From Actinomycetota bacterium (GTDB lineage: Bacteria; Actinomycetota; Thermoleophilia; Solirubrobacterales; 70-9), in assembly GCA_018268605.1 (NCBI GenBank), contig JAFDWG010000326.1:1-48283 (forward strand): DNA of 48,283 nt, read 5' to 3'. This document shows positions 13,538-48,283 of this stretch, one piece after another. How positions within the stretch are numbered: the first letter of the stretch is position 1; every line of letters starts with the position of its first letter. The notes beneath the pieces were generated by a model. That model was not told where the DNA came from. It searched no databases and was given only the letters and a program-made list of their open reading frames with translations. A program made the translations under genes and the position numbers.

Positions 13538-13579
13538 CGGGTCCCCGGGGAAAGGGACGCAAGGCGTCCCGGCGAGCAT

Positions 13580-13629
13580 GGCCGTCCCGGCCACAGCCCG
13601 GGCAGGCTGTGGCCGTGGCCGGGACGGCC
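13580..13629. repeat. Hairpin B, copy I
   Basis: A 15-bp perfect stem (13580-13594 with 13615-13629, GGCCGTCCCGGCCAC). GGCCACAGCC (13589-13598) can instead pair with the GGCTGTGGCC that ends at 13613, giving an alternative fold. Compared with copies II-IV the stem reads CCC where they read CTC, and the opposite arm changes to match. Confidence 0.7.
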
Positions 13630-13783
13630 GGGGTATGAGAGGTGAGGAGAAACTCCGACGCCGTCCCGGGAGACGTGCGGGAGATGTCGGGAAGTCCACG
13701 CTTCCGTGCGTGTCGCACAACACCGACCTATGTGCGCGGCAGGTTGACCCCCCTACAGGGGGTGGATCTGCCCCGCCCATCTC

Positions 13784-13828
13784 CGTGCCGCACATTGGTG
13801 CCCCCATAGGGCACGAATGTGCGGCACG
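13784..13828. repeat. Central palindrome of copy I with CCATA loop
   Basis: Outer arms of 13 bp (CGTGCCGCACATT, 13784-13796, with 13816-13828) enclose inner arms GTGCCC (13798-13803) and GGGCAC (13809-13814) capped by CCATA (13804-13808). A neighbouring small hairpin, ACCCCC-CTACA-GGGGGT (about 13747-13763), lies just upstream. Confidence 0.7.
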
Positions 13829-13897
13829 TCCTTCGGGATCGGCCGAGGTGTGGCAACTCACGCACGGACCCCCGGAGGAACACCGCACTCCCTCCGT

Positions 13898-13951
13898 CCT
13901 GGGCGTCTCATGGAGGTCACAGCCTGCCAGGACCTCCATGAGACGCCCAGG
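13898..13951. repeat. Hairpin A, copy I
   Basis: A 21-bp perfect stem: 13898-13918 (CCTGGGCGTCTCATGGAGG plus TC) with 13931-13951, and a 12-base loop. The core CCTGGGCGTCTCAT recurs in copies II, III and V. Confidence 0.75.
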
Positions 13952-13987
13952 GCACCGCCCCTCGGACGGCCGCCACCAGAAGATCCC

Positions 13988-14014
13988 TAAAGGTTCCTCC
14001 CGTCCTGCCGATCA
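13988..14014 (+). promoter_or_regulatory. Sigma-28-type promoter of flagellin
   Basis: TAAA at 13988-13991, a 15-base spacer, and GCCGATCA at 14007-14014: one mismatch to the FliA consensus and identical in both boxes to the fliO site. The predicted start near 14021 gives a leader of about 70 nt before the flagellin ATG. Confidence 0.82.
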
Positions 14015-14092
14015 GAGGGACGACATAAACCATGGGGCGACACGGATGTCGCCTCGGGACCATCAACCAACGATCCAAGGAGAGAGATCGGA
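14015..14092 (+). promoter_or_regulatory. Flagellin mRNA leader with candidate CsrA sites
   Basis: The leader contains several GGA triplets (about 14018, 14044-14046, 14056-14058). One GGA (14079-14081) is inside the ribosome-binding site AAGGAGAG, and another (14090-14092) touches the ATG. CsrA binds GGA motifs, and in Bacillus it represses flagellin this way with FliW as antagonist. csrA and fliW lie 2-3 kb away. Binding here is inferred. Confidence 0.5.
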
Positions 14093-14905
14093 ATGTCCCT
14101 TCGTGTTCAGACCAACATGGAAGCCTTCAACGCGCACCGGAACCTGGTGTCGACGAGCGAAGGCATCGGCAAAGCGATGGAACGCCTGTCCTCGGGCTAC
14201 CGCATCAACCGTGCCGCGGACGACGCCGCCGGCCTGGCGATCAGCGAAAGGCTGAAGGCCCAGGTCAAAGGCATCGGCCAGGCGCAGCGGAACGTGCAGG
14301 ACGCCGTCTCCGTCGTGCAGACCGCTGAAGGTGCCCTCAACGAGGTCCACTCGATGCTCCAGCGCACCCGCGAACTCGCCGTCCAGTTCAAGAACGGCTC
14401 GCTCTCGGAAGGCGACAAGGTGTCGATCCAGTCGGAGATCAACCAGCTCGCCAGCGAGGTGGCCCAGATCGGCGAAGACACCGAATTCAACGGCATCAAG
14501 CTGTTGAACGAAAAAGCGACGATCACCTTCCAGGTCGGCGCGAACGACGGCGAGGTGATCAGCGTCTCCACGATCAGCCTCGGCGAAGCGGTCAAAGCCG
14601 CGGCGTTCGAACTCAAATCGGGCACCGAAGGCGCCGAAGACATCAAACAGATCGACTCGGCGATCGAAGCGGTGTCGAGCCAGCGCGCCGAATTCGGCGC
14701 GGTGCAGAACCGCCTCGAACACACGCTCAACAACCTGGCCGTCTACCAGGAAAACCTGAGCGCCTCGGAAAGCCGTATCCGCGACGTGGACATGGCCTCC
14801 GAAATGGTCCAATTCACCAAGCTGCAGATCCTGCAGCAGGCCGGCACCTCGATGCTGGCGCAGGCCCAGCAGTCCGGGTCGGCGGTGCTGAAGCTCCTCG
14901 GCTAG
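14093..14905 (+). CDS. fliC: Flagellin
   Basis: A 270-residue flagellin, near the minimal size. It has the conserved N-terminal D0/D1 helices (SLRVQTNMEAFNAHRNL, SSGYRINRAADDAAGLAISE) and the C-terminal D1/D0 helices (SRIRDVDMASEMVQFTK, QQAGTSMLAQA, ending VLKLLG), with only a short middle section (about 145-190) that would be surface-exposed. It is exported through the flagellar channel. A strong ribosome-binding site (AAGGAGAG) sits 8 bases before the ATG, and a sigma-28 promoter sits at 13988-14014. Glu and Lys codons are mostly GAA/AAA. A GC-rich hairpin follows the gene. Confidence 0.97.
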   Translation: MSLRVQTNMEAFNAHRNLVSTSEGIGKAMERLSSGYRINRAADDAAGLAISERLKAQVKGIGQAQRNVQDAVSVVQTAEGALNEVHSMLQRTRELAVQFKNGSLSEGDKVSIQSEINQLASEVAQIGEDTEFNGIKLLNEKATITFQVGANDGEVISVSTISLGEAVKAAAFELKSGTEGAEDIKQIDSAIEAVSSQRAEFGAVQNRLEHTLNNLAVYQENLSASESRIRDVDMASEMVQFTKLQILQQAGTSMLAQAQQSGSAVLKLLG

Positions 14906-14926
14906 AGAGGAGCGGGACGCATGCGG

Positions 14927-14957
14927 GCGGCCGGCCGGCGGGGAGCCGGCCGGCCGC
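14927..14957 (+). terminator. Hairpin after flagellin
   Basis: A 13-bp perfect GC-only stem (GCGGCCGGCCGGC with GCCGGCCGGCCGC, loop GGGGA), 21 bases after the flagellin stop. There is no following T run, so it may act with Rho or protect the 3' end rather than being a classic intrinsic terminator. Confidence 0.6.
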
Positions 14958-15056
14958 CTCGGAGTCTCGTCCAGGGTGCGTCCACAGGCGTCCAGGGATG
15001 GCTGCGCGCCGTTCTGACGAGGTCCTTCCACTTCTGGGTAATGGCATCAATGCGCT

Positions 15057-15083
15057 TAAAGATGTCCTGAGCGGGACCGATCA
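15057..15083 (+). promoter_or_regulatory. Sigma-28-type promoter before CHAP hydrolase gene
   Basis: TAAA at 15057-15060, 15-base spacer, ACCGATCA at 15076-15083. Seven bases further is about 15090, just before the ATG at 15092, so the message would be essentially leaderless. Confidence 0.65.
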
Positions 15084-15091
15084 AATGAGAG

Positions 15092-15757
15092 ATGACTCTC
15101 GAAACGACGCTCGCCCGGATCTCGGCGATCGAATCGGCCTTGGCGCCGCCGCCGGGCGGCGGAACCGGCGCGCCGGCTCCGGGCCTCGCGAGCGCCTCGG
15201 TCGCTTCACCCGCCTCCTCGACCTCCTTCTCGCAACTGCTGAACCGGGCCTCCACGAGCTCGACGCTCTTGCCCGGAGCCTCGCCGATCGCGCTCGGGAC
15301 GACCGCTGGAGCCAGTACCGCCGGCCTCGCCGCGGTGGCCGCGGCCAAGACCCAGGTGGGCCAGGCCGAGATGCCGCCCGGCTCCAACGAATCGCCGCGG
15401 ATCGCCGAATACCGAAGCGCGGTGCAGGGCGCCGTGGTCGGCCCCTGGTGCGCCGACTTCGCCTCCTGGTGCGCCGCCCAGGCGGGCATCCCGCTGGGAG
15501 AAAACGGAGAAGGCTTCCAGGGCGTCGGCGCGCTCTGGGAATGGGCGGAGGCAAGCGGCCGTGCGATCCCCGCCGACGAAGGCTCACCGGCCCCCGGCGA
15601 TCTGATCGTCTGGGGCTCCGACCATGTGGGGATCATCGAAGCGGTCGACCCCGACGGGACCATTCATACGATCGAGGGCAACTCGTCCGACGAAGTCGCC
15701 CAGCGCACCTACGGCCCGGGCGAAAGCGGCGCCACCGGATACGTCCGCCTCGGATGA
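15092..15757 (+). CDS. CHAP-domain peptidoglycan hydrolase, probably flagellar
   Basis: A 221-residue protein. The low-complexity N-terminus (1-85) has no Sec signal peptide. The C-terminal CHAP amidase/endopeptidase domain (about 85-221) shows the expected catalytic Cys120 (WCADFASW), His178 (DHVGIIE) and Asn197 (EGNSS). A sigma-28 promoter and a position next to flagellin suggest it opens the cell wall for the rod, as the enzymatic half of FlgJ does elsewhere; a separate FlgJ rod-binding domain is at 20208-20540. Export through the flagellar apparatus is a plausible inference. It overlaps the LuxR-type gene (ATGA). Confidence 0.85.
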   Translation: MTLETTLARISAIESALAPPPGGGTGAPAPGLASASVASPASSTSFSQLLNRASTSSTLLPGASPIALGTTAGASTAGLAAVAAAKTQVGQAEMPPGSNESPRIAEYRSAVQGAVVGPWCADFASWCAAQAGIPLGENGEGFQGVGALWEWAEASGRAIPADEGSPAPGDLIVWGSDHVGIIEAVDPDGTIHTIEGNSSDEVAQRTYGPGESGATGYVRLG

Positions 15758-16440
15758 GCTACCTGATCTCCAGCGACACGGCGCATGGCGCCGCGGCCAA
15801 GGGCCCTGCGACCCCGCCGCGAGCCCGGGCGTCGGCCGAGCTCTCGATTCGATTGCCACTCGTGGCCGTCTATGCGGAACGGGCGATCGCGCGCGCCGGT
15901 CTCGTCGCCCTGCTGCGCTCGCAGATGTTCGATGCCGTCATGCCCGAAGAGGAGGACCGCGGGCCGCTCGCCCTCCGTCCCGACGTGATCCTGATCGCCG
16001 GCTTCGCGCCGGAGCGCCGTCTCGCCGACAGCCTCGCGAGGCGCCATCGTGCCCCGGCGATGCTGATGCTCGACGGCCCGATCAGCGCCAATTCACCGGC
16101 GGAGCTGGGTGTGCACGGCGCGGTCTGCCGCGAGTGCCCGCCCGAGCGGCTGATCGAAGGGCTCCACGCCCTCGCCGCCGGCGGGACCTTCTTCGAGTGC
16201 CACACCCACCCCTCGGCACCGACCCCGACCGACTCGCTGCTCTCGCCCCGGGAGCGCCGCGTCACCGCCGAGCTGGCCCGTGGCGCGGGCGTCGAGGAGA
16301 TCGCCGCGGCGCTCTGCATCAGCCCCCACACCGCCCGCACCCACGTGCGGAACGTCCGTCGCAAACTCGGCGCCCGCACCTCGGCCGAGGCGGTCGCGCG
16401 TGCGCTCACCCTCGGTCTGGTGGCTGTACCGGCGCCGTGA
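15754..16440 (+). CDS. LuxR-family regulator with degenerate receiver
   Basis: A 228-residue protein. The N-terminal region (about 30-145) follows a response-regulator layout (LPLVAVYAERAIARAGLVALL, RPDVILIAGFAP, AVCRECPPERLIEGLHALAAG). At the end of the third strand, where the phosphorylated Asp normally stands (LLDxxMP), the sequence is LIAGFAP, so phosphorylation there is unlikely. The C-terminal GerE/LuxR helix-turn-helix (about 160-222, LLSPRERRVTAELARG, ISPHTARTHVRNVRRKL) is intact. It is co-translated with the CHAP gene, and its last 35 bases overlap the 3' end of csrA on the other strand. Confidence 0.82.
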   Translation: MSYLISSDTAHGAAAKGPATPPRARASAELSIRLPLVAVYAERAIARAGLVALLRSQMFDAVMPEEEDRGPLALRPDVILIAGFAPERRLADSLARRHRAPAMLMLDGPISANSPAELGVHGAVCRECPPERLIEGLHALAAGGTFFECHTHPSAPTPTDSLLSPRERRVTAELARGAGVEEIAAALCISPHTARTHVRNVRRKLGARTSAEAVARALTLGLVAVPAP

Positions 16441-16627
16441 AGTCGCCCTGCGCGGCGGCTTCGTTCTCCCGCTTGATCTGCTCCCAGAGCTCCTCGCGGT
16501 AGATCCGCCGCTCCTTCGGCGCGGTGATCCCAAGGCGGACCGAGCCGCCGCTCACCTCGACGATCTCGACCACGATGTCGTCGCCGATCAGGATGCGCTC
16601 GCCCTGGCGGCGACTGATCGTCAGCAT
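16406..16627 (-). CDS. csrA: Carbon storage regulator CsrA
   Basis: A 73-residue CsrA/RsmA RNA-binding protein starting MLTISRRQGERILIGDDIVV, with the RNA-contacting GITAPKERRIYREELW segment. It represses translation by binding GGA motifs in mRNA leaders; flagellin is the usual Gram-positive target. No good Shine-Dalgarno sequence precedes the ATG. In most genomes csrA directly follows fliW; here 367 bases containing element copy II lie between them. The 3' end overlaps the LuxR-type gene tail-to-tail. Confidence 0.96.
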   Translation of the reverse strand: MLTISRRQGERILIGDDIVVEIVEVSGGSVRLGITAPKERRIYREELWEQIKRENEAAAQGDFTAPVQPPDRG

Positions 16628-16672
16628 CGGGGGAGTGTAGTGGGGGTGCGGGCGGGGGCGGCAGTCCTATTG

Positions 16673-16732
16673 CGTCCTGGGCGTCTCATCGCGGTCCTGG
16701 CCGGCTACGACCGCGATGAGACGCCCAGGACG
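16673..16732. repeat. Hairpin A, copy II
   Basis: A 24-bp perfect stem (16673-16696 with 16709-16732) and a 12-base loop CTGGCCGGCTAC. It shares CCTGGGCGTCTCAT with the other copies; the stem base CGCGGTC replaces GGAGGTC of copies I and V on both arms. Confidence 0.75.
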
Positions 16733-16751
16733 TGAGGGTTCCGTGTGGATT

Positions 16752-16841
16752 CGAACGGTCAGGGATCTGCGTGGAAGCGTTGCGGTGTTCCTTAGTTCCG
16801 ATATTCCGAACTAAGGAACACCGCAGATCCCTGACCGTTCG
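16752..16841. repeat. Central nested palindrome of copy II
   Basis: Outer 20-bp arms (CGAACGGTCAGGGATCTGCG, 16752-16771, with 16822-16841) enclose inner 16-bp arms (CGGTGTTCCTTAGTTC, 16783-16798, with 16808-16823). The outer arms match copy IV except for one base, which is changed on both arms. Confidence 0.75.
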
Positions 16842-16887
16842 GTGCCCGGCGTACGAGCCGGGCCGACGTGCTTCCCTCACATACCCC

Positions 16888-16937
16888 GGCCGTCTCGGCC
16901 ACGGCCACAGCCAGCCCGGGCCGTGGCCGAGACGGCC
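16888..16937. repeat. Hairpin B, copy II
   Basis: A 19-bp perfect stem, GGCCGTCTCGGCCACGGCC (16888-16906) with 16919-16937, and a 12-base loop. Stem identical in copies III and IV. Confidence 0.75.
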
Positions 16938-16994
16938 GCGCTCGCCGCCACGTCTTGCGTCCCTTTCCCGGTCGCGAACGCCGAAGCCGCGACC

Positions 16995-17438
16995 CTACGC
17001 CGCGACCTGCCGCCGGCCGCCGGAGAGCAGCGGCTCGCGCAAGGGCGCCCAGGACGCCTCGTTCATCACCTGGTGCCCGACGCCGGCCGAGACGAGGATC
17101 GGGGCGAGAAGGTTGGCGCTGATGCGGCCCGGATCCTCGTCGGCGCGGACGACGACCAGCACCTGGGCGGTGGCGGGATCGGTGACGCCGATCCGGGCGG
17201 CCTCATCGTCGGAGAGGATGACCTCGTAGTCGGGGAAGAAGGCGAAAGGGTCGGTGACGGGCAGGGCGAGGTGGGGCTCGGAGGCCTCCTGCAACCACTT
17301 GAAGGCACCACTCTCCTCACGTTCGAGGAGAGCGAAACGGCGCCCGCCGACGCCGATCATGCCCTCCGGGAAGTCGATCAGGGCCTCGACGGGAACCTTG
17401 AGCTCCCCGAACCGCGTGCTGTCGACGATCTCGATCAT
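16995..17438 (-). CDS. fliW: Flagellar assembly factor FliW
   Basis: A 147-residue FliW. Typical segments are RFGELKVPVEALIDFPEGMIG, FALLEREESGAFKWLQE and PDYEVILSDDEAARIG. FliW binds both flagellin and CsrA, so that secretion of flagellin releases FliW to inhibit CsrA. It is the last gene of the flgF-flgL operon, 20 bases after flgL, with a GGAAGAGGAG ribosome-binding site next to the ATG. Confidence 0.95.
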   Translation of the reverse strand: MIEIVDSTRFGELKVPVEALIDFPEGMIGVGGRRFALLEREESGAFKWLQEASEPHLALPVTDPFAFFPDYEVILSDDEAARIGVTDPATAQVLVVVRADEDPGRISANLLAPILVSAGVGHQVMNEASWAPLREPLLSGGRRQVAA

Positions 17439-17458
17439 CTCCTCTTCCTTCCCCCGTC

Positions 17459-18373
17459 CTACCTGAGGAATTCCATCAGCGACGGCTGGATCAGTTTGGA
17501 GCCGGAGCGAAGCGCCGTTTCGTAGGCCGCCTGTTCGGAGGAGTAGTTGACCAACGCTTCGGCCATATCGACGTTGTAGACGTTGTTGAGCTGGGCCAGG
17601 CTGGCTTCCTGCAGCTGTTCCAGCCGCGTCCCCGCCGTCTCCAGGCGGTTGGTGGTGGCGCCGACGACGGCCCGCACCCGGGTCAGTTCGTCCATGTTGG
17701 CACTAAGGCGTTCGAGGTCGGTGCCGCGCAGCGCTTCGGCGTTGGCTGCGGTGCCGCCACGCAGGTCGGTGACGATGTCGCGCAGCACGTCGAGCAGCTT
17801 GTTGTCGTTGGCCGCGGCGCCGTTGCCGAGGACGGTCTGCATGTCGACGTTGACCCCGATCGAGACGCCCTTGCCGATCACCCGCTGGATCGTCCCTTCG
17901 TCCCCCTGGTATTCGTCGCCGGGACCGGGTTCGTAGGGCCGCGTTTCGGTCGCCGTGCCGGAGAAGATGTAGCGGTCGTCGTAGGTGACGTTCGCTTCCT
18001 GCTTTACCGCTTCGGTGAGCGCTTCGATCTCCGCCGCGATCCCTTCGCGGGCGACCTGGCCGTTGGAGTCGTTGCCGCCCTGGACGAGGAGTTCGCGGGC
18101 CCGCTGCACCGTGGAGGTGATCCGCGACAGCGCCGTTTCGGTCGCCGTCACCCAGCCGACCCCGTCGTCGACGTTCGACTTGTACTGCTTGAAGGACTCG
18201 AGCTCCCCGGTCAGCTGCAGGGTGCGCCCGGCGCCGAAGGGGTCGACGGCGGGACGGGTGATGCGGTGGCCGGAGGAGATTTCGCGCTGTAGCCGGGTGA
18301 GGCGGCCTTTGGTCGCGCCGAGATCCTGGAGGACCGTGCGCCGGGTCATCCCCTCGGTGATCCTCATCGTCAT
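17459..18373 (-). CDS. flgL: Hook-filament junction protein FlgL (HAP3)
   Basis: A 304-residue flagellin-like junction protein. The N-terminus MRITEGMTRRTVLQDLGATK and the C-terminal helix (YNVDMAEALVNYSSEQAAYETAL, SLMEFLR) are FlgL-type. An in-frame ATG two codons downstream is an alternative start. Glu codons are mainly GAA. It follows flgK by 22 bases. Confidence 0.95.
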   Translation of the reverse strand: MTMRITEGMTRRTVLQDLGATKGRLTRLQREISSGHRITRPAVDPFGAGRTLQLTGELESFKQYKSNVDDGVGWVTATETALSRITSTVQRARELLVQGGNDSNGQVAREGIAAEIEALTEAVKQEANVTYDDRYIFSGTATETRPYEPGPGDEYQGDEGTIQRVIGKGVSIGVNVDMQTVLGNGAAANDNKLLDVLRDIVTDLRGGTAANAEALRGTDLERLSANMDELTRVRAVVGATTNRLETAGTRLEQLQEASLAQLNNVYNVDMAEALVNYSSEQAAYETALRSGSKLIQPSLMEFLR

Positions 18374-18395
18374 CGCGCGCCCCTCCCCCGCCCGC

Positions 18396-19724
18396 TCACA
18401 GGCCGACCCGGCCGGTGCGGTTGATCAGCACGTCGAGCGCTTCGTCGAGCGCGGTCATCGCCCGCGCCGAGGCTTCGTAGCCACGCTGAAAGCGCTGCAG
18501 GTTCGTCATTTCTTCGTCGAGGGAGACGCCGGAAGCCGATTCGCGCCGTTCGGAGACCGCGTTCAGCAACGCCTGGGAGTTGGTTTCGCCGTTCTTGGCT
18601 TCGTTCATTTCGGTGCCGACGCGGGTGACGAAGGCGGCATAAGCCCGATCGACCGCACCGCCGCGGAGCGCCCCGATCGCGGTCGCGATGTCGTTGCCGC
18701 CGACCGCGCCGCTGCTCGCCGTCTCGACTTCGGCGGCTTTGACGGCGACGTTCAGCGAGGCGGCGGCTTTGCCCGCTTCGTAGGTAAAGAACGCCGGGCC
18801 GCCGCCTTTCGTGTGGATCGCGTCGACGGCATTCGCGAGGCCTTCGGCGAACCCGTTCAGTTCTGCGCGGAACGATTCGACCGTGCCCCCGGGTTCGACC
18901 AGTTCGAGCAGCGCCCCGAGCTTCCCCTTCGGTTCTTTCAATTCCTGGGGCCAGTCGACTTCGGTGCCGGAGACGAGCGGTTCGGCGGCGTCGCCGAAGC
19001 CGACTTCCACCGTCCCGTCTTCCAGTTCGGTGACGGAGACCTGACCGAGCCCCGATAGTTCGTCCAGCAGGAGGTCACGCCGGTCGAGTAGGTCGTTCGG
19101 TTCGGCGCCTTGGCTCTTCGAGGTGCGGATCGCCCCGTTCAACAGAGCGATTTCTTTCGCCTTCTGTTCCACTTCGCCCCCTTTGCCGGTGATCGCGGCG
19201 TATTCGCCTTTGGCCACCGTGGCGGCGTCGGTCAGCTGCTGATTCAGTTCGGCGAGGCTGACGCCGAGCGCCTTGCCCGCTTCGACCACCGCCTGGCGCG
19301 CGGCGGAGTCTTCGGGGCTGTTGGCGAGCCCTTCCCAGTCGGTCCAGAAGGTCTGCAGCTCTTTCGAGATCCCGGTTTCCCCCGGCTCGGCGAGCGCCCC
19401 TTCGATCGTTTCCATCCCCTGCACACGGGCGGCGAGCCCGCCGAGGCGCATCGCCTGGGCGCGGTATTGGAGGTCGAGGAAGCGGTCGCGTGCGCGATTG
19501 ATGCCGGTGACGTCGACCCCGGTCCCCAATTCGGCCTTGCCGTTACCGGCGCTCGAGCCGGTGTTGATCTTCAGGGCGCGGCTGGCGCTGGTCGTCACTT
19601 CCTGACGCGAGTACCCGCGCGTGTTCGCGTTGGCGATGTTGTGGCCGGTGACGTCGAGGGCCTCCTGCTGGGCGATCAGGCCACGCAGCGCGGTCTGTAG
19701 GCCCATGAAGGTGGATACGCCCAC
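18396..19724 (-). CDS. flgK: Hook-filament junction protein FlgK (HAP1)
   Basis: A 442-residue junction protein. It has the N-terminal rod-type motif (GLQTALRGLIAQQEALDVTGHNIANANTRGYSRQ), a middle coiled-coil region, and the C-terminal SLDEEMTNLQRFQRGYEASARAM helix. It connects hook to filament. Its start lies 4 bases after the flgN stop. Glu codons are mostly GAA. Confidence 0.95.
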   Translation of the reverse strand: MGVSTFMGLQTALRGLIAQQEALDVTGHNIANANTRGYSRQEVTTSASRALKINTGSSAGNGKAELGTGVDVTGINRARDRFLDLQYRAQAMRLGGLAARVQGMETIEGALAEPGETGISKELQTFWTDWEGLANSPEDSAARQAVVEAGKALGVSLAELNQQLTDAATVAKGEYAAITGKGGEVEQKAKEIALLNGAIRTSKSQGAEPNDLLDRRDLLLDELSGLGQVSVTELEDGTVEVGFGDAAEPLVSGTEVDWPQELKEPKGKLGALLELVEPGGTVESFRAELNGFAEGLANAVDAIHTKGGGPAFFTYEAGKAAASLNVAVKAAEVETASSGAVGGNDIATAIGALRGGAVDRAYAAFVTRVGTEMNEAKNGETNSQALLNAVSERRESASGVSLDEEMTNLQRFQRGYEASARAMTALDEALDVLINRTGRVGL

Positions 19725-19728
19725 GCCG

Positions 19729-21957: not shown

Positions 21958-21967
21958 CCAGCCCCGG

Positions 21968-21994: not shown

Positions 21995-22015
21995 GCCGAG
22001 TCCGCGCCGAGTGGC

Positions 22016-27710: not shown

Positions 27711-27752
27711 GCTGACGGCCATCGTGCCGGCCGCCCCGGCAGTCCTATGTCG

Positions 27753-27811
27753 GTCCTGGGCGTCTCATCGCGGTCCTGGCCGGCTGTGACCGCGATGAGA
27801 CGGCCCAGGAC
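27753..27811. repeat. Hairpin A, copy III
   Basis: A 23-bp stem (27753-27775 with 27788-27811) with one bulged G (CGGCCC instead of CGCCC in the right arm). The loop is CTGGCCGGCTGT. Confidence 0.72.
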
Positions 27812-27900
27812 GTGAGGGGTCCCGTGAACAACTCCCGGGAGACGTGACGCTTCCGCCCGGAACTCCACGCCTTCGTCACGGTTTCCTCGCACCCTGACCC

Positions 27901-27947
27901 GACCCCGCGTCCTTTGTAGCCCTGTGGGCTACAAAGGACGCGGGGTC
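27901..27947. repeat. Central palindrome of copy III: perfect 22-bp stem
   Basis: Arms at 27901-27922 and 27926-27947 pair perfectly over 22 bp (starting GACCCCGCGTCC, ending at GTAGCCC) around a 3-base loop TGT. It sits between convergent genes and could stop transcription from both sides, but has no T run. Confidence 0.8.
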
Positions 27948-28065
27948 GGAGTCGGTCCCGGGACGGTCAATCCGTGGAGGAAGGCAGGAGGATGCGTGGG
28001 GTTCGTGACGTCTCCCGCACGTCTCTCGCAACGGCGTCGGAGTTTCTCCGCACCTTTCAAACCCC

Positions 28066-28115
28066 GGCCGTCTCGGCCACGGCCACAGCCTGCCCGGGCC
28101 GTGGCCGAGACGGCC
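28066..28115. repeat. Hairpin B, copy III
   Basis: A 19-bp perfect stem (28066-28084 with 28097-28115), sequence as in copies II and IV. Confidence 0.75.
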
Positions 28116-28155
28116 GGGCTCGTCGCAAGCCCCTGCGTCCCTTGCCCGGGGCCTT

Positions 28156-35518: not shown

Positions 35519-35573
35519 GGCCCTCCGAGGGACGCCCAGGACGTGACGGTTCCGGGCGGAAGAGCGGGAGATT

Positions 35574-35701
35574 CGAACGGTCAGGAATCTGCCGTGTTCC
35601 TTTGTTGCGCCATACGCAAGTTTCGAACACCGCAAGAGCTTGCACGGTTCGAAACTTCGGCTATTCCGAAGTCAGGAACCGCGCAGATTCCTGACCGTTC
35701 G
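35574..35701. repeat. Branched central palindrome of copy IV
   Basis: Outer 19-bp arms (35574-35592 with 35683-35701) enclose three smaller hairpins: TTGCG-CCATA-CGCAA, GTTTCGAAC...GTTCGAAAC (itself containing GCAAG-AG-CTTGC), and CTTCGG-CTATT-CCGAAG. The result is a clover-like fold. Outer arms match copy II with a base change mirrored on both sides. Confidence 0.75.
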
Positions 35702-35747
35702 GGGCCCGGCGTACGACCGGCCCGCCATGCCTTCCCGCACATCCCCC

Positions 35748-35797
35748 GGCCGTCTCGGCCACGGCCACAGCCAGCCAGGGCCGTGGCCGAGACGGCC
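35748..35797. repeat. Hairpin B, copy IV
   Basis: A 19-bp perfect stem (35748-35766 with 35779-35797), as in copies II and III; the loop differs by one base (AGCCAGCCAG). Confidence 0.75.
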
Positions 35798-35861
35798 ATG
35801 CTCGCCGCCCCCGCCTTGCGTCCCTTTCAATCGGGCGCCGAAAGCGCCCGGACCCTCCGAG

Positions 35862-39834: not shown

Positions 39835-39861
39835 CCGACCGCAACCCTATTCAATAGACCC

Positions 39862-42327: not shown

Positions 42328-42417
42328 GGGCAAACCGTCCACGCGTCCAGTCGGCCGCGGGCGATCTTTCGACTTTGGGCCATGCCGCTTCCGGGTAGCT
42401 GTCCTTAGCGTGCGAGC

Positions 42418-43872
42418 ATGGCGACGACCTTGAATCCGGCCCGACCCTTTCCCGGTGCCGGCGTGTACCCGCTCGATTCGGGGCACTTCGACGAGGCGTT
42501 CGCCAAGGCCGGCACCTCGCGCCCTCCCTACGCGACGGTGGTCGACGCGCTCGCGCGGCATAACCTGGTGGAGCTGCGCGAGCGCGTCCGGTCGAACGTC
42601 GATCGGATCGGGCTCTCCTTCGGCCCGGGGCGGCCGATGACCGTCGACCCGGTGCCGCGGGTGATCGACGCGGCCGAGTGGGAGGCGCTGGAAGCGGGGC
42701 TGCTGCAACGGGCGCGGGCGCTGAACGCGTTCGTCCTCGACGCCTACGGCGACCAGCGGATCTTCGAGGAGGGGGTCGTCCCCCGCCGCCTGCTCGAGAC
42801 TTCACAGGGGTTCGAGCCGCTGATGCGCGGCATCCTGGACCCGGCGGTGCCGCCGGCCACGGTCGCGGGAATGGACCTGATCCGTGACCCGGACGGCGAG
42901 CTGCTGGTGCTGGAGGACAATCTGCGGATGCCCTCCGGGGCGACCTACGCGATCGCGGTACGCGAAGCGGTCGGCCCGGCGCTGGGACCCGCGGCGGCAA
43001 CCGACGTGCGCTCACCGGACGGCTACGTCGAGCGGCTGGGAGAGGCGATCCGCGCCGCGGCGCCCTCCCAGCACGCCGCCGAACCGGTCGCCGCGATCCT
43101 CTCCGACGGCCCCGAGAGCGGCGCCTACTACGAGCACGAGCGGCTCGGCCGCGAGCTCTCGCTGCCGATCGTCACGCCGGATCAGCTGTCCCAGGCGCGC
43201 GGGCGCCTGCACGCACACGTCGGCCGGGAGCGCCTGCAGCTCGACGTCGTCTACCGCCGCCTCGACGCCGATCGCCTCACCGATCCCGGCGGCTCGCTGA
43301 CCCCACTGGGCGCGCTCCTCGCCCCGGCGTTGCAGTCGGGACGGCTGCGCTGCGTCAACGCGATCGGCACCGGGCTCGCCGACGACAAGCTCGCCCACGC
43401 CTATGTCGAGGACATGATCCGCTTCTACCTCGGCGAGGAGCCGCAGCTGCGCTCGGTCCCCAGCTACGACCTCTCCGATCCCTCCGCCCGCGAAGAGGTG
43501 GTCGGCCGCCTCGACGAGCTGGTGGTGAAGCCGCGCGACGGCTTCGGCGGCCACGGCGTGACGATCATGCCGCGGGCGACCGAGGGCGAGCGGCGCAAGG
43601 TGATCGGCCTCGTGCGGCGCCGCCCGGAGCGCTTCGTCGCGCAGGAGCTGGTGTCGCTCTCCACCCACCCCACCGTCGTCGGCACCGGCCTGGCGCCCCG
43701 TCGAGTCGATCTGCGCCCCTACGTCCTCAGCCCGGCGACCGGGGAGCCTTCCGTCATGCAGGGCGGCCTCACGCGCTACGCCAAGGAAGCCGAGGAGATG
43801 GTCGTCAACAGCTCCCAGGGTGGTGGGTCGAAGGACACCTGGGTACTTGGACCGACGAACGACCTGGTATGA
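42418..43872 (+). CDS. Circularly permuted ATP-grasp protein
   Basis: A 484-residue CP_ATPgrasp (DUF404/DUF407-type) protein. Signs are RIGLSFGPGRPMTVDPVPRVI, LVLEDNLRMPSGATYAI, VNAIGTGLADDKLAHAYVEDM, and near residues 368-381 VVKPRDGFGGHGVTI, the ATP-binding Lys/Gly-rich loop. Such enzymes join carboxyl and amino groups into peptide bonds, and usually sit with alpha-E and transglutaminase proteins; neither is present here. It overlaps the C26 gene (ATGA), starting a three-gene cassette. Confidence 0.86.
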   Translation: MATTLNPARPFPGAGVYPLDSGHFDEAFAKAGTSRPPYATVVDALARHNLVELRERVRSNVDRIGLSFGPGRPMTVDPVPRVIDAAEWEALEAGLLQRARALNAFVLDAYGDQRIFEEGVVPRRLLETSQGFEPLMRGILDPAVPPATVAGMDLIRDPDGELLVLEDNLRMPSGATYAIAVREAVGPALGPAAATDVRSPDGYVERLGEAIRAAAPSQHAAEPVAAILSDGPESGAYYEHERLGRELSLPIVTPDQLSQARGRLHAHVGRERLQLDVVYRRLDADRLTDPGGSLTPLGALLAPALQSGRLRCVNAIGTGLADDKLAHAYVEDMIRFYLGEEPQLRSVPSYDLSDPSAREEVVGRLDELVVKPRDGFGGHGVTIMPRATEGERRKVIGLVRRRPERFVAQELVSLSTHPTVVGTGLAPRRVDLRPYVLSPATGEPSVMQGGLTRYAKEAEEMVVNSSQGGGSKDTWVLGPTNDLV

Positions 43873-44687
43873 AGACGCGCTCCTTGGCATCCCGGCAAAA
43901 AGCACCCCTGATCGGGGTCACGACCTCCGAGGTCCGTCCGAAGGAGCGGGTTCACCCCGTCCCCGAGAGCGAGCCGCCGGCGGTCGAGATGGCCCTCGGG
44001 CTCCCCTACCTGAAGGGGATCGAGGCGGCGGGCGGGCTGCCGCTGGTGATCCCGCCGCTGGACACGAGCGCGATCGAGCCGCTGCTGGACCGGCTCGATG
44101 GGATCTGCCTCTCGGGCGGCCCCGACCTGGACCCGGCGCTGTACGAGGCCGAGCCGCACCCCGAACTGGGGCCGATCGAGCCCGACCTCGACCGCTTCGA
44201 GATCGACGTCGCCGCCCGCGCCGACGCCCGTGAGATGCCGATCCTGGCGATCTGCCGCGGCACCCAGGCGCTGAACATCGTCCGTGGCGGGGCGCTCCAC
44301 CAGCACCTGCCCGATCTCTCGACCGAGGTCCACCACCGCCAGACCAACCCCGGGACCGAGCCGAGCCACCCGGTCGAGATCGAGGCAGACTCCGAGCTCG
44401 CTCGGATCTTCGGCGGCGAGGAGCTGGAGATCGCCGACGTCAACTCCTTCCACCACCAGGCGATCGACCGGCTCGGCGAGGGGCTGCGGGTGAGCGCGCG
44501 GGCTCCCGACGGCACGATCGAGGCGGTCGAGGACCCGAGCAGGCGCTTCCTGATCGGGGTCCAGTGGCACGCCGAGACGCTCGTCCACCGCCAGGCCGAG
44601 GCCGCCCTCTTCCGCCGCTTCGTCGACGCCTGCCGCGACGACGGGGCCGAATACGAGCGGGCCGCGCGACGGCGAGAGGTCGCGTGA
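43869..44687 (+). CDS. Class I glutamine amidotransferase-like peptidase C26 (PuuD type)
   Basis: A 272-residue gamma-glutamyl hydrolase-like enzyme. Catalytic Cys129 (LAICRGTQALNI), His234 and Glu236 (GVQWHAE) form the triad. PuuD-type members cleave gamma-glutamyl amides. It is placed between an ATP-grasp ligase and a GCS2 carboxylate-amine ligase and overlaps both (4 bases each), so it probably acts on the product of one of them. Confidence 0.88.
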   Translation: MKTRSLASRQKAPLIGVTTSEVRPKERVHPVPESEPPAVEMALGLPYLKGIEAAGGLPLVIPPLDTSAIEPLLDRLDGICLSGGPDLDPALYEAEPHPELGPIEPDLDRFEIDVAARADAREMPILAICRGTQALNIVRGGALHQHLPDLSTEVHHRQTNPGTEPSHPVEIEADSELARIFGGEELEIADVNSFHHQAIDRLGEGLRVSARAPDGTIEAVEDPSRRFLIGVQWHAETLVHRQAEAALFRRFVDACRDDGAEYERAARRREVA

Positions 44688-45838
44688 ACGTGGCCGAGTC
44701 ACCCGGGACCTTGCCGGCCTGGGCGACTTGGCCGGAGCCGCACGAGCAGGGCGCCTACACGGTCGGGATCGAGGAGGAGGTGATGCTCCTCGACCAGCTC
44801 ACCTGGGCGCTCGCGCATCGCATCGACTCGGTGCTGCCGCGGCTCCCCCACTCCCGCGACAACAGCTTCACCGCCGAGACGCACGGCTCGGCGCTGGAGA
44901 TCCAGACCGGCGTGCATGGCCGGATCGACGCCGCGATCGAAGAGCTCGGCGCCCTGCGGCGGGAGCTCGAGGAGACGCTGAGGCCCCTCTCGATGCGCGC
45001 GGCGAGCGCCGGCATCCACCCCTTCGCCGTGTGGCAGGAGATCGTCGTCACGGCGGGAGAGCGCTACCAGTTCGTCTACGGCTCGATGCGCGAGCTGGCC
45101 CGTCGGGAGCCGACCTTCGGCCTCCACGTCCACGTCGGGGTGCCCGACCCCGAACAGGCGATCCACGCAGCCAACCGCCTGCGCTCCGAGATCCCGCTGC
45201 TCTTGGCGCTCTCGGTCAACTCGCCGTTCTGGCAGGGCCGCGACACCGGCCTCGGCTCCGCCCGCACGCCGCTCTTCCAGGCCTTCCCCCGGGTCGGCGT
45301 ACCGCGCGCGTTCCACACCTACGCGGAGTACGTCGAGTCGGTCGACGTCTTGATCCGCTCCGACGCGGTTCCCGAGCCGACCTTCCTCTGGTGGGACGTG
45401 CGGCCACAGCCGCGCTTCGGCACCGTCGAGGTGCGGATCATGGACGCCCAGACGACGCTCGCCGACACCGCCGCGCTGGCGGCGCTGGTCCAGTCGATCG
45501 TGCGGCTCGAGGTGGAGGAAGGAGCCCACACATACGACTGCGGGATCCCTCCCGAGGTGCTCGACGAGAACCGCTTCCTCGCCGCCCGCGACGGCATGGA
45601 GGCCGAGCTGATCGATCACGACCGCAGCGAACGCGTCCCCGCCCGTGAGCTACTCGACGACCTCCTCGTCCTCTGCCGCCCACACGCCGAAGCGCTCGGC
45701 TGCGGGCCGGAACTCGAGTCGGCCCGACGCCTCGCGGACCGCACCGGCGCCCGCCGCCAACTGGAGCTGAGCCGCTCCCTCGGCAGCCTCAACCGCGTCG
45801 TCGCGGTCCTCGCCGACGACTTCTTGGCAGGAGCCTGA
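44684..45838 (+). CDS. GCS2-family carboxylate-amine ligase (YbdK/EgtA-like)
   Basis: A 384-residue GCS2 protein: YTVGIEEEVMLLD at the N-terminus, FTAETHGSALEIQTGVHG, FGLHVHVGVPDPEQAI and the WWDVRPQPRFGTVEVRIMD block. Members link glutamate to cysteine or another amine. Mycobacterial EgtA belongs to the same family, so this could make gamma-glutamylcysteine for EgtB 11 kb away, but the closer YbdK subfamily has broad or unknown substrates. The GTG start at 44684 overlaps the C26 stop (GTGA). Its stop lies 6 bases from the convergent thioesterase stop. Confidence 0.87.
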   Translation: MNVAESPGTLPAWATWPEPHEQGAYTVGIEEEVMLLDQLTWALAHRIDSVLPRLPHSRDNSFTAETHGSALEIQTGVHGRIDAAIEELGALRRELEETLRPLSMRAASAGIHPFAVWQEIVVTAGERYQFVYGSMRELARREPTFGLHVHVGVPDPEQAIHAANRLRSEIPLLLALSVNSPFWQGRDTGLGSARTPLFQAFPRVGVPRAFHTYAEYVESVDVLIRSDAVPEPTFLWWDVRPQPRFGTVEVRIMDAQTTLADTAALAALVQSIVRLEVEEGAHTYDCGIPPEVLDENRFLAARDGMEAELIDHDRSERVPARELLDDLLVLCRPHAEALGCGPELESARRLADRTGARRQLELSRSLGSLNRVVAVLADDFLAGA

Positions 45839-45844
45839 GCGTTC

Positions 45845-46291
45845 CTAGATCGCGAAAGGTTCGCCGGGCGGGATGACGAACTGGCTCACTACCAGGTGGG
45901 CGGCCAGTTTGGAGTTCCCGTCCCGGATGCGGTCGATGCGGACCTGGATGACCGCGGTGCTACGGCCGGCGTGGAGGGGCTCGGCGGTGGCGACGATTTC
46001 GTCGCCGAGGCGACCGGCACCGAAGACGTTCAGCTTCAGCTCGATCGTGGTGAAGTCCCAGCCGGGCGGGATCGCGCGGAAGGTGGCCCAGGCGGCGACG
46101 GTGTCGCCGAGGGCGGTCCAGACGCCGCCGTGGACGAAGCCGCCGGGATGCAGGTGGCGACTCTCGACCAGGATCCGGCCCCGGGCGTGGTCGTCCTCGA
46201 TCTCCAGCGGTTCGATGCCGATGTCGCCGGGAAAGCTCCCCACGGCGAACTCGCGGATGTCTTCCGGCTTGACCTGGGAAAGATCTGGCAT
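45845..46291 (-). CDS. PaaI-type hotdog thioesterase
   Basis: A 148-residue hotdog protein. LHPGGFVHGGVWTALGDTVAAWA is the typical 4HBT/PaaI active-site helix; the catalytic Asp in GDT is present. It likely hydrolyses acyl- or aryl-CoA. A longer frame to 46342 exists, but it runs through the terminator hairpin at 46311-46337, so the ATG at 46291 is chosen. It follows the thiolase on the same strand but is separated from it by that terminator. Confidence 0.85.
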   Translation of the reverse strand: MPDLSQVKPEDIREFAVGSFPGDIGIEPLEIEDDHARGRILVESRHLHPGGFVHGGVWTALGDTVAAWATFRAIPPGWDFTTIELKLNVFGAGRLGDEIVATAEPLHAGRSTAVIQVRIDRIRDGNSKLAAHLVVSQFVIPPGEPFAI

Positions 46292-46302
46292 GGGATCTGT
46301 AT

Positions 46303-46337
46303 GTAAACAAGAAGCGGCCCCGCCATGGGGCCGCTTC
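46303..46337 (-). terminator. Intrinsic terminator after the thiolase gene
   Basis: On the minus strand an 11-bp perfect stem (GAAGCGGCCCC with GGGGCCGCTTC, loop ATGGC) is followed by TTGTTTAC. It lies 28 bases after the thiolase stop. This is the only classic hairpin plus T run I found in the window. Confidence 0.85.
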
Positions 46338-46364
46338 GTCACATAACGATTACTCGGGCGTCCC

Positions 46365-47525
46365 TCAGACCCGCTCGACGATCATCGCCTTGCCCTGGCC
46401 GCCGGCGACGCACATCGTCTCCAGGCCGACCTGGGCGTCGTCGGTCTCCATGCCGTTCAGCAGGGTGCCCATGATGCGGGCGCCGGTCATGCCGAAGGGG
46501 TGGCCGAGGGCGATCGCGCCGCCGTGCGTGTTCAGCTTGCTTTCGTCCATCCCGGTTTCCTCCATGATCGGGATGACCTGGGCGGCGAACGCCTCGTTCA
46601 GCTCGTACTTGTCGATGTCGCCGATCGACATCCCGGCCCGGTCGAGGACCTTCTTCACCGCGCCGATCGGGGCCACCCCCATCAGCTCCGGCTCGTTGCC
46701 GTAGGTGGCGGCGGTGACGATGCGGGCGCGCGGCGTGAGGCCGAGCTCCTTGGCTTTCGTGTCGCTCATCAGCAGCACCGCGGCGGCACCGTCGTTCAGC
46801 GGGCAGGAGTTGCCGGCGGTGACCCCGCCGCCGCCCTCGAAGGCCTCGCCGAGTTCGGCGAGCTTCTCCAGGGTCGAGGACGCGCGCGGGCCGTCGTCCT
46901 TGGCGACCACGGTGCCGTCGGGGAGGGTCACCGGCACGATCTCGCGGTCGAAGAACCCGTCCGCCTGCGATTTGACCGCCAGTTCCTGGGAGCGCTGGGC
47001 GAACCTGTCCATGGCCTCGCGGCTGACGCCGTACTTCTTGGCGACGTTGACCGCGGTGATGCCCATCTCGATGTAGGCGTTCGGCCGGCCGTTCTCGCCG
47101 ATCAGGTTCTCGTCGCGATCCTGGACGCGAGCCGCCTCGGTGGCCTCGTTGTAGCGGCTGACCCACTCGACCCCGACGGCGATGTAGGCGTCGCCCTCGC
47201 CGGCCTTGATCGCGTTGCCCGCGTGGCGGATCGCGTCGAGGCTGGAGGAGCAGTAGCGGGAGATGGTGACGCCGTTGACCGTCTGCGGCAGCTTCTGCGA
47301 CAGCAGGCTGATGATCCGGCCCAGGTTGAAGGCCTGCAGTCCCTGCGGCATGCCGACGCCGCAGAAGACGTCCTCGACCAAGGCGGGGTCGAGCGCGGGA
47401 TTCCGCTCGAGCAGCTGGTCGACCACGAAGGCGCCCTGCTCCTCGGGACGCAGAGCCGCGAGCGAGCCCTTGAAGGCGCGGCCGATCGGCGTGCGGATGG
47501 TGTCGACGATCACTGCTTCGGGCAT
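46365..47525 (-). CDS. Acetyl-CoA C-acyltransferase (thiolase)
   Basis: A 386-residue thiolase. Nucleophilic Cys92 (SRYCSSSLDAI), the NEAFAAQ motif, the GGAIALGHPFGMTGAR block and the C-terminal ETMCVAGGQGKAM, which supplies the second Cys, are all present. It cleaves or condenses acyl-CoA in fatty acid degradation. The frame is open upstream through the promoter region and element copy V, but the ATG at 47525 has AAGGAGG (47534-47540) in front. Confidence 0.93.
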   Translation of the reverse strand: MPEAVIVDTIRTPIGRAFKGSLAALRPEEQGAFVVDQLLERNPALDPALVEDVFCGVGMPQGLQAFNLGRIISLLSQKLPQTVNGVTISRYCSSSLDAIRHAGNAIKAGEGDAYIAVGVEWVSRYNEATEAARVQDRDENLIGENGRPNAYIEMGITAVNVAKKYGVSREAMDRFAQRSQELAVKSQADGFFDREIVPVTLPDGTVVAKDDGPRASSTLEKLAELGEAFEGGGGVTAGNSCPLNDGAAAVLLMSDTKAKELGLTPRARIVTAATYGNEPELMGVAPIGAVKKVLDRAGMSIGDIDKYELNEAFAAQVIPIMEETGMDESKLNTHGGAIALGHPFGMTGARIMGTLLNGMETDDAQVGLETMCVAGGQGKAMIVERV

Positions 47526-47610
47526 CTCGGGCGCCTCCTTGGGTATAAGTGCGAATCGACTGACTTGCGTTGAGCCGACGAGGAGCGTAAAGCAAACGCC
47601 CCTTGGCTGA

Positions 47611-47626
47611 TTGACTGGTCGGTCAA
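47611..47626. promoter_or_regulatory. Candidate TetR-type operator upstream of thiolase
   Basis: TTGACTGGTCGGTCAA is an imperfect 16-base palindrome (6 of 8 positions per half) in an AT-richer patch between the divergent thiolase and zinc-ribbon genes. Its form suits TetR-family regulators of fatty acid degradation; no regulator gene is nearby. Confidence 0.3.
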
Positions 47627-47750
47627 ACTTTCGTGACATTCCGCATTTGCCTATGCGTGCGGCGGAGCCTTCTGGGGTACATTCGAACGATTCAGCCTGC
47701 GTGGGAACGTGGGAAAAGGGCCGCGTAGCGGCAGGAAAGGAGGCCTCGAC

Positions 47751-47900
47751 ATGCCGGAGGGCTACTGCGTCAAGGAGCGCAAGAAGGTCGAGATCAAAGA
47801 CGCCAAACAGGTCACGATGAAGAACGGCCGCCCCGCGATCCAAGGGGTCTGCCCCGACTGCGGGACCAAAATCTTCAAGATCGGCAAACTCGAGGCTTAG
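47751..47900 (+). CDS. DUF5679-like small zinc-ribbon protein
   Basis: A 49-residue protein: YCVKERKKVEIKDAKQVTMK, then GVCPDCGTKIFKIGK. It matches the DUF5679 ribbon layout, but the first knuckle has only Cys6 (Glu9 where the second Cys would be), while Cys34/Cys37 are kept. The ATG at 47751 has a strong GAAAGGAGG ribosome-binding site; a GTG extension to 47709 is less likely. Function unknown. Confidence 0.82.
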   Translation: MPEGYCVKERKKVEIKDAKQVTMKNGRPAIQGVCPDCGTKIFKIGKLEA

Positions 47901-47963
47901 GGGACGGGGGGTCGGCGGGGACGGCTGTCGCGCCGGCCCGGGCGGCCGTCCGAGGGGCGGTGC

Positions 47964-48017
47964 CCTGGGCGTCTCATGGAGGTCCTGGCAGGCTGTGACC
48001 TCCATGAGACGCCCAGG
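47964..48017. repeat. Hairpin A, copy V
   Basis: A 21-bp perfect stem (47964-47984 with 47997-48017), loop CTGGCAGGCTGT. The arms are identical to copy I. Confidence 0.75.
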
Positions 48018-48170
48018 ACGGAGGGAGTGCGGTGTTTCTCCGAGGGTCCGTGCGTGAGAGGCCACACCTCGGCCGATCCATTGACGAAGACGTCTGGAAC
48101 TCCTCACTTCCATGGCGCCTTCTGTCGGGAACCGCAGCCCTCCGTGACGGTTCCGTCCGGCCCGAATCGC

Positions 48171-48216
48171 CGCTTGGTGAGTTGAGCCGCCCATAGCGCG
48201 CTCAACTCACCAAGCG
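48171..48216. repeat. Central palindrome of copy V with CCATA loop
   Basis: A 16-bp perfect stem (CGCTTGGTGAGTTGAG, 48171-48186, with 48201-48216) with an inner CGC-CCATA-GCG hairpin as its apex. Stem sequence is unrelated to the centres of the other copies. Confidence 0.72.
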
Positions 48217-48283
48217 TGAAGTCGGTGTCGTGCAACACGCACGGAACCCGGCGCTTCCCACGCTCTCACGCACGGAAGCGTGG

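What the first reader, a model, noticed from the sequence alone, without database searches (positions are those of the whole stretch)
13541..48283. A family of modular palindromic elements (A hairpin - variable palindrome - B hairpin) in five intergenic gaps
Seen directly: gaps at 13541-13975, 16660-16973, 27739-28151, 35519-35835 and 47941-48283 share one order. Hairpin A (core CCTGGGCGTCTCAT, 21-24 bp stems, conserved 12-base loop) comes first, then a central palindrome, then hairpin B (19-bp GGCCGTCTCGGCCACGGCC stem) and a tail ending CTTGCGTCCCTTTCCC. Copy I is inverted; copy IV has half of A; copy V runs off the window. Two subtypes exist: I and III share one A-B spacer, II and IV another. 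Stem changes are mirrored on both arms (GGAGG versus CGCGG in A; CCC versus CTC in B), so folding appears to be selected or gene-converted. Established: REP/BIME, ERIC and RPE elements are known palindromic families, but none has this three-part layout to my knowledge. Inference: structured RNA at gene ends or a non-autonomous mobile element.
Basis: partly seen in the sequence, partly recalled or inferred. Interest (0 to 1): 0.82.

Follow-up and report, generated by a model that had tools for sequence, protein, structure and literature searches.

The report
Modular palindromic mobile repeats in Solirubrobacterales
Dozens of copies of a 0.3-0.6 kb DNA element, built from two mirror-image hairpins around interchangeable palindromes, appear to have jumped into the gaps just after genes in one group of bacteria, with no sign of the enzyme that moves similar elements elsewhere.

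Summary
The five gaps hold members ("F1") of a family with at least 60 A and 76 B modules in this 3.8-Mb draft. Of 12 genomes of the genus, 6 carry it and 6 show no match; the 5 carriers that could be put in a PntB tree group together. Two facts reshape the reading. First, the 12-base loops of hairpins A and B are one motif in inverted order (67 of 68 distinct pairs); across species the loop hardly changes while the stems change with compensation, and the two loops do not covary with each other. Second, orthologous sites are filled in one species and empty in another, most clearly between fliW and csrA (filled here, empty in four relatives). Copies lie between convergent genes or after stop codons, with either end facing the stop, which argues against a strand-specific RNA. 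The "central palindromes" are separate short repeats, many with TA-containing centres, that also occur alone and inside a second composite (F2). Nearest designs: streptococcal BOX elements and REPINs/BIMEs. No IS200/RAYT-type transposase was detected in the 12 drafts. Best reading: a new variant of non-autonomous composite mobile repeats, mobiliser unknown.

The parts
13538..13579 (-). Copy I: tail (T end, AAAGGGACGCAAGG on the + strand), next to the stop codon of the MetW-like gene
13580..13629 (-). Copy I: hairpin B, 12-nt loop
   Evidence: inverted repeat I3
13630..13897 (-). Copy I: spacer with inner palindromes (13784-13828)
13898..13951 (-). Copy I: hairpin A, 12-nt loop
   Evidence: inverted repeat I1
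13952..13985 (-). Copy I: outer A segment (approximate end)
16641..16672 (+). Copy II: outer A segment; the whole copy (16641-16994) separates csrA and fliW
16673..16732 (+). Copy II: hairpin A, 24-bp stem
16733..16886 (+). Copy II: spacer with nested inner palindromes (16752-16841, 16781-16825)
16887..16938 (+). Copy II: hairpin B
   Evidence: inverted repeat I4
16939..16994 (+). Copy II: tail up to the fliW stop codon
27711..27751 (+). Copy III: outer A segment (approximate start)
27752..27812 (+). Copy III: hairpin A (one extra base in the 3' arm)
27813..28062 (+). Copy III: spacer with a 24-bp inner palindrome (27899-27949)
28063..28118 (+). Copy III: hairpin B
   Evidence: inverted repeat I2
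28119..28155 (+). Copy III: tail up to the stop codon of the converging gene
35519..35542 (+). Copy IV: remnant of A (3' arm only) directly after a stop codon
35543..35747 (+). Copy IV: spacer with nested palindromes (35574-35701, 35618-35657)
35748..35797 (+). Copy IV: hairpin B
   Evidence: inverted repeat I2
35798..35861 (+). Copy IV: tail up to the pntB stop codon
47901..47963 (+). Copy V: outer A segment (approximate start)
47964..48017 (+). Copy V: hairpin A
   Evidence: inverted repeat I2
48018..48283 (+). Copy V: spacer with inner palindrome (48162-48225), cut by the contig end
11985..12033 (.). Solo S1 palindrome inside an open reading frame (11682-12872), outside F1

Best explanation
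F1 is a non-autonomous composite mobile repeat. Two terminal hairpins, A and B, each a stem of about 16-24 bp with a 12-nt loop C(T/G)GGCNGGCTGT, lie in inverted order around a spacer that carries interchangeable short palindromes. Shown: repetition, inverted loop order, near-constant loops with compensated stems across species, presence or absence at orthologous sites, either orientation next to stop codons, grouping of the carriers tested, and different inner palindromes at one backbone position. Inferred: an enzyme acting in trans recognises the hairpins as folded DNA by loop and stem shape, not by stem sequence, and moves the unit, as has been proposed for REPINs; copies persist mostly where they harm least, after stop codons and above all between convergent genes. 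The enzyme is not identified and no IS200/RAYT-type gene was detected.
For: Genome-wide copies against reversed controls. Loop order inverted in 67 of 68 distinct pairs. On 38 cross-species hairpins 94.4% of cells pair, 180 cells with change on both sides against 64.7 in shuffles, slid controls far lower. Site differences: fliW-csrA filled here, empty in G006, G008, G003, G011; pntB gap empty in G006, filled in G000, G003, G008, and in G011 in the opposite orientation; five of six comparable sites lack F1 in G007; the gap 45838-45845 is empty here and filled in G003. Carriers 6 of 12 in the genus; the five in the PntB tree form one side of a 100/99 branch. 28 of 47 distinct copies in convergent gaps, 1 divergent; 6 of 11 in contiguous G007 DNA against 148 of 1054 gene pairs, P 0.002. 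Spacers with and without palindromes at the same backbone position.
Against: No mobilising gene found: Y1_Tnp 0 of 12, IS110 not correlated, no linked gene stood out, no pair of ends around a gene in 1.18 Mb of G007. No sign of a target duplication, though exact ends are not known. Two sites are occupied in both G000 and G007 (L086/L157; L080 remnant and L154 full) and pntB in four species, so some copies may be inherited or sites re-used. In G007, 23 of 35 hairpin places had no partner within 1 kb (some weak), so many units are broken or single. One pair (L136) has both loops in the same order. No experiment and no strain-level data.
Confidence: 0.72

Rival explanations
1. Structured RNA or transcription terminator kept at gene ends because the folded transcript protects or ends the mRNA.
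For: Strong predicted folds (copy II z -13.4), position after stop codons, compensated stems.
Against: Either end faces the upstream stop equally often in co-directional gaps (8 and 8); G-U cells are rare (2 of 608); no Rfam match at the copies tested; six species of the same genus have no match.
Confidence: 0.12
2. Old, vertically inherited intergenic repeats, homogenised by gene conversion and lost piecemeal; empty sites are deletions, and arm-to-arm conversion explains the compensated stems.
For: Hybrid arms in 3 of 26 A hairpins; two sites occupied in both G000 and G007; internally deleted copies; palindromes with TA-type centres also in non-carrier G002.
Against: fliW and csrA are separated by 9 nt or less or overlap in four relatives, which fits insertion better than four exact deletions; opposite orientation at pntB in G011; no match in any of six sister genomes.
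Confidence: 0.1
3. Binding sites for a nucleoid or topology protein: cruciform-forming DNA at convergent gene ends that absorbs supercoils.
For: Convergent position, symmetric layout, TA in 54 of 117 centres of palindromes outside F1 and F2 against 4.5% background.
Against: No match in six species of the same genus, so no general chromosome role is served; position is also expected from purifying selection.
Confidence: 0.05

Closest known systems
BOX elements (S. pneumoniae, S. suis)
   Same: Composite repeat with fixed terminal modules around variable inner modules; in S. suis two different terminal sets surround the same inner module, as F1 and F2 do here; over-represented between convergent genes; almost absent from a relative (PMC3049150, passages seen).
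   Different: Here the terminal modules are hairpins with one conserved 12-nt loop in inverted order, and the inner modules are palindromes that also occur alone. No sequence comparison with BOX was made.
REPIN / BIME (REP doublets)
   Same: Inverted doublet of hairpin units with a spacer, intergenic, proposed as miniature non-autonomous mobile DNA (PMC3116915, abstract seen); REPs lie mostly in convergent and co-directional gaps close to the 3' ends of ORFs (PMC3733652, section 15 seen).
   Different: REPs are 20-40 bp with a GTAG or CGTC tag, and GTAG REPs are linked to RAYTs; here units are about 50-60 bp with 16-24 bp stems and 12-nt loops, and Y1_Tnp was not detected in 12 of 12 genus genomes.
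CGTC-tagged REPs
   Same: Palindromes without an associated transposase gene, mostly in head-to-head dimers (PMC3733652, passages seen); CGTC occurs in the F1 stems.
   Different: Their stems are 8-9 bp and loops 4-5 nt with an unpaired CGTC tag; here CGTC lies inside the stem.
MITEs (Correia, RUP and the like)
   Same: Short, non-coding, highly folded, dispersed, intergenic.
   Different: MITEs are described as AT-rich with terminal inverted repeats and target duplications (PMC3049150, passage seen); F1 is GC-rich and no target duplication was seen.
Neisserial intergenic mosaic elements
   Same: Composite intergenic repeats of 70-200 bp (one sentence seen in PMC3049150).
   Different: Not compared in sequence.
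Rickettsia palindromic elements
   Same: Palindromes that can lie inside genes (PMC3733652), as one S1 palindrome does here.
   Different: F1 itself is composite and intergenic in the copies examined.

Membership tests
REP / REPIN / BIME | Inverted doublet of palindromic units, intergenic, many copies | tested here: met
   67 of 68 pairs inverted; copy numbers; positions
REP / REPIN / BIME | Small unit (20-40 bp) with unpaired GTAG or CGTC tag | tested here: not met
   Stems of 16-24 bp, 12-nt loops; by eye no unpaired tag of this kind in alignments
REP / REPIN / BIME | RAYT (Y1 tyrosine transposase) in the genome (GTAG type) | tested here: not met
   PF01797 in 0 of 12 genus genomes, control rings in 5 of 14; drafts are incomplete
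BOX-type composite repeat | Fixed terminal modules around variable inner modules | tested here: met
BOX-type composite repeat | Same inner modules inside different terminal sets | tested here: met
   Inner palindrome arms S2, S3, S5 and S7 in or beside F1 and F2 copies, by eye in the list
BOX-type composite repeat | Sequence relationship to streptococcal BOX | not tested
   no BOX sequence was fetched
MITE | Target site duplication | tested here: not met
   Mean longest shared word of own flanks 6.15 against 6.34 for re-paired flanks, 26 copies; ends not exact, so a 2-3 bp duplication is not excluded
MITE | Ends shared with an autonomous element | tested here: inconclusive
   None in 1.18 Mb of G007, about 28% of that genome
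IS200/IS605-mobilised element | Y1 transposase | tested here: not met
IS110-linked element | IS110 transposase tracks the carriers | tested here: not met
   PF02371 in 2 of 6 carriers and 2 of 6 non-carriers
Known RNA family (Rfam, including group II introns) | Match to a covariance model at the element | tested here: not met
   Window and ten loci tested: at gathering score only a tRNA in L069; at E 0.1 only a cspA-like match in L142, more than 1 kb from the F1 copy
Kissing-loop RNA | Covariation between A and B loops | tested here: not met
   Centre position agrees in 23 of 45 pairs against 22.9 shuffled; whole loop 489 against 490.4

The most novel reading that the evidence does not exclude
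A new mode of bacterial DNA transposition: an unknown enzyme, not of the Y1 type, that recognises folded hairpins by a conserved 12-nt loop in inverted pairs while the stem sequence drifts freely under base pairing, carries exchangeable palindromic cargo, and has a second composite (F2) with other hairpins around the same cargo.
Probability: 0.25. Interest if true: 0.78.

Novelty: new variant of a known kind. Interest (0 to 1): 0.56.

Why it matters
REPINs are linked to RAYT transposases. Here is a clade with dozens, perhaps a hundred, REPIN-like units per genome at sites that differ between close species, and no detectable Y1 transposase. Carriers and non-carriers lie in one genus, so a full comparison of gene content could point to the mobiliser. 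The constant loop and variable but paired stem tell what the recogniser probably sees. The same inner palindromes inside two different composites show how modular repeats can be assembled. In practice such repeats also break assemblies: 17 of the 30 A-core loci listed first in the own genome lie within 100 bases of a contig end.

Tried and rejected
Kissing loops: the A and B loop consensus sequences are complementary, which suggested loop-loop pairing. Dropped because variable loop positions do not covary.

Mobiliser: RAYT/IS200 none; IS110 no correlation; clustering of 1626 predicted proteins from loci around copies and from the G007 contigs gave, by my reading of the first residues of the 25 largest clusters, only ordinary families; no '>' then '<' hairpins 1-6 kb apart in the G007 stretches (read by eye).

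Vectors: copy II only was compared with 50,697 phage and 72,556 plasmid records, no match. The F1 pattern with a CGTCTC stem hit 0 viral contigs. The exact S1 palindrome hit one, where it lies near a hairpin with a related loop and another stem (by eye).

Wider range: model R3 on 399 genomes of the class matched 10. Six others have one match each, one at E 4.8e-8 and five at 2.3e-5 or weaker; I looked at about 180 bases around each and took them for chance, which is a judgement.

Superseded or dropped: the A/B sorting was contaminated and was redone. Site L097 was dropped because its flanks lie 149 kb apart in G007. In one search, several T hits more than 150 nt from a gene end look spurious but are in its counts. 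In one search, eight G007 rows that repeat earlier loci were removed by hand. The A-C against G-T lean is too weak by distinct kinds (10 to 9; 13 to 5) to be used.
Full report
What is there. The window is one contig (C251) of a 3.79-Mb draft in 375 contigs. The five gaps contain what was described. The A core has 114 hits with at most one mismatch against 0 for the reversed control; the B stem has 160 against 1 with at most two. Covariance models gave 60 A and 76 B modules in the own genome; these are floors, since only 68 and 76 candidates were scored.

Anatomy. I call the element F1. In A-to-T order it has an outer segment around GGC(A/C)GTCC(T/G)AG, hairpin A, a spacer with palindromes, hairpin B, and a tail with GCGTCCCTTTCC followed in many copies by CGGGCGCC. 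The predicted fold of copy II is an outer stem enclosing A, a long central hairpin and B (-220.8 kcal/mol, z -13.4). The A loop CTGGCNGGCTGT and the B loop ACAGCCNGCC(A/C)G are the same motif in inverted order, in 67 of 68 distinct pairs from loci in hand with stems of at least 14 of 18 pairs; the exception is L136. In 1.18 Mb of G007 with a laxer stem limit there were 11 inverted pairs, one same-order pair with weak stems (13 of 18), and 23 hairpins without partner within 1 kb, some of them weak. I first thought of kissing loops, but the variable loop positions do not covary, so the loop looks like a recognition motif present twice.

Stem and loop evolution. On 38 hairpins of A and B type from six species, 94.4% of cells pair, 180 cells carry changes on both sides against 64.7 in shuffles, and 2 cells have a one-side change, while most loop columns hardly vary. 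The rows are related, so the shuffles give no probability, and conversion between the two arms is another possible source of compensation. Within the own genome 3 of 26 distinct A hairpins have arms of different subtypes.

Species range. Of 61 genomes searched with both models 6 match, all in the own genus of 12. An exact loop pattern gives 111, 160, 156, 62, 54 and 18 hits in G000, G011, G006, G007, G003 and G008 and 0 in the six others; controls give 0 or 1 per genome. A PntB tree of 10 species puts its 5 carriers on one side of a 100/99 branch; G007 and G005 were left out because only non-overlapping pieces of the gene were found. A search of 399 genomes of the class found no other genome with more than one match.

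Mobility. (1) fliW and csrA: the genes are separated by 9 nt or less or overlap in G006, G008, G003 and G011; here copy II lies between them (FliW by Pfam; csrA named from its sequence, recalled). (2) pntB and its convergent neighbour: in G006 the gap is under 40 bp; in G000, G003 (contig ends inside A) and G008 (no intact A) an element has its T end toward pntB; in G011 one lies in the opposite orientation. (3) Of 40 places in the own genome compared with 1.18 Mb of G007, 7 had both flanks there; one was dropped (flanks not collinear). Of six, five lack F1 in G007 (L069, L074, L084, L093, L098; the G000 copy in L093 has no A core) and one (L068) holds F2. (4) The gap 45838-45845 of the window is empty here and filled in G003. 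Against: L086/L157 is F1-filled in both G000 and G007, and L080/L154 is a remnant here and a full copy in G007. No sign of target duplication in 26 copies, with ends not known to the base.

Position. With my own simple gene caller, 51 A-end hits face a stop codon in 39 cases and 65 T-end hits in 51, some T hits being spurious. 47 distinct copies with both neighbours (55 rows less 8 repeats) give 28 convergent, 18 co-directional and 1 divergent gap; in co-directional gaps T faces the stop 8 times, A 8 times, undetermined 2. In contiguous G007 DNA 6 of 11 pairs are convergent against 148 of 1054 gene pairs (P 0.002); counted as single hairpins, solos included, it is 15 convergent, 11 co-directional, 4 divergent and 1 inside a gene. 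In the G000 loci, chosen because they hold elements, it is 14 of 19 (P 6e-8). The same bias is described for REPs (PMC3733652, section 15 seen) and for pneumococcal repeats, where it was read as tolerance of parasitic inserts (PMC3049150, passages seen).

The inner palindromes. 1.18 Mb of G007 holds 165 long palindromes against 5 in a Markov resample. Beside F1 there is a second composite, F2, with stems GGCGCGGCCATCCCCCTCAT and GGCGCGCCCGTCCCGCCCTCA and loops near GCTTCGGCTGGTT, inverted in the five pairs I could pick out by eye; its exact pattern occurs only in G007 (18 hits). Solo palindromes with repeated arms include S1 GTTGATGGGCCGAAAACC, S2 CAGCTGTTCCTTATG and S3 GGTGTTCCTTACTTG. Of 117 palindromes outside F1 and F2, some surely chance, 54 have TA in the central six bases against 4.5% background. 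Several of the same arms occur alone, in F1 spacers and in F2 spacers. At one position of the F1 backbone two copies (L073, L086) have no palindrome and others have different ones. S1 half-sites occur in the same six genomes (54 to 203 hits) and in none of the other six. The exact S1 palindrome was found in 95 stretches of the 84,980-species collection; the 80 listed come from five carrier MAGs. Non-carrier G002 has 12 long palindromes in 350 kb, none F1, about eight with a TA-type centre by eye, so short palindromes of this style are wider spread than F1.

Mechanism. I commit to a non-autonomous mobile repeat recognised in trans as folded DNA through the loop. Shown: repetition, inverted near-constant loops, compensated stems, presence and absence at orthologous sites, either orientation, module exchange. 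Inferred: the enzyme, recognition as folded single strand, and that position reflects survival rather than targeting. The enzyme is unknown.

Comparison with known kinds. The layout is nearest to BOX elements, whose S. suis forms have two terminal sets around the same inner modules, and to REPINs (abstract seen). It does not meet unit size, tag or RAYT for REPs, nor a target duplication for MITEs. I file it as a new variant of composite palindromic repeats. Searches for 'Thermoleophilia' with 'palindromic repeat' (2 papers, by their titles on other subjects) and for 'Solirubrobacterales', 'repetitive', 'palindrom' (none) found no report of it; the library is partial.

Noticed in passing
window 11985-12033: An S1 palindrome lies in frame inside an open reading frame of 396 aa (11682-12872) whose first part weakly resembles a glycosyltransferase (PDB match E 1.6e-4), like an intragenic palindromic insert.
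   Followed up: partly
window 16641-16994: Copy II separates fliW from csrA, which are adjacent or overlapping in four relatives; it may affect control of flagellin genes, which flank the region.
   Followed up: partly
G007 contigs, e.g. C93:103386-103775 (in L255): F2, a second composite of inverted hairpins with other stems and loops around the same kind of inner palindromes; found only in G007.
   Followed up: partly
G007 C95:5110, 40276, 45419 (in L261, L263): Three similar hairpins GGTGACCCGGCGGAAC-AAA(A)(C)AGCGGGAG-GTTCC, unlike the other palindromes; nature unknown.
   Followed up: no
L382 (viral contig IMGVR_UViG_3300044692_000144), about 35-390: An S1 palindrome near a hairpin with loop ATAGCCCGCCGG and a stem unrelated to F1: perhaps a distant relative of F1.
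   Followed up: no
L142 1636-2004: cspA-thermoregulator-like RNA match below the gathering score (66.7 against 78 bits).
   Followed up: no
own genome contig ends, e.g. C17:13, C45:22, C50:24, window end: Many contigs end inside F1 (17 of the first 30 A-core loci within 100 bases of an end), so the repeat breaks the assembly and copy counts are low estimates.
   Followed up: partly
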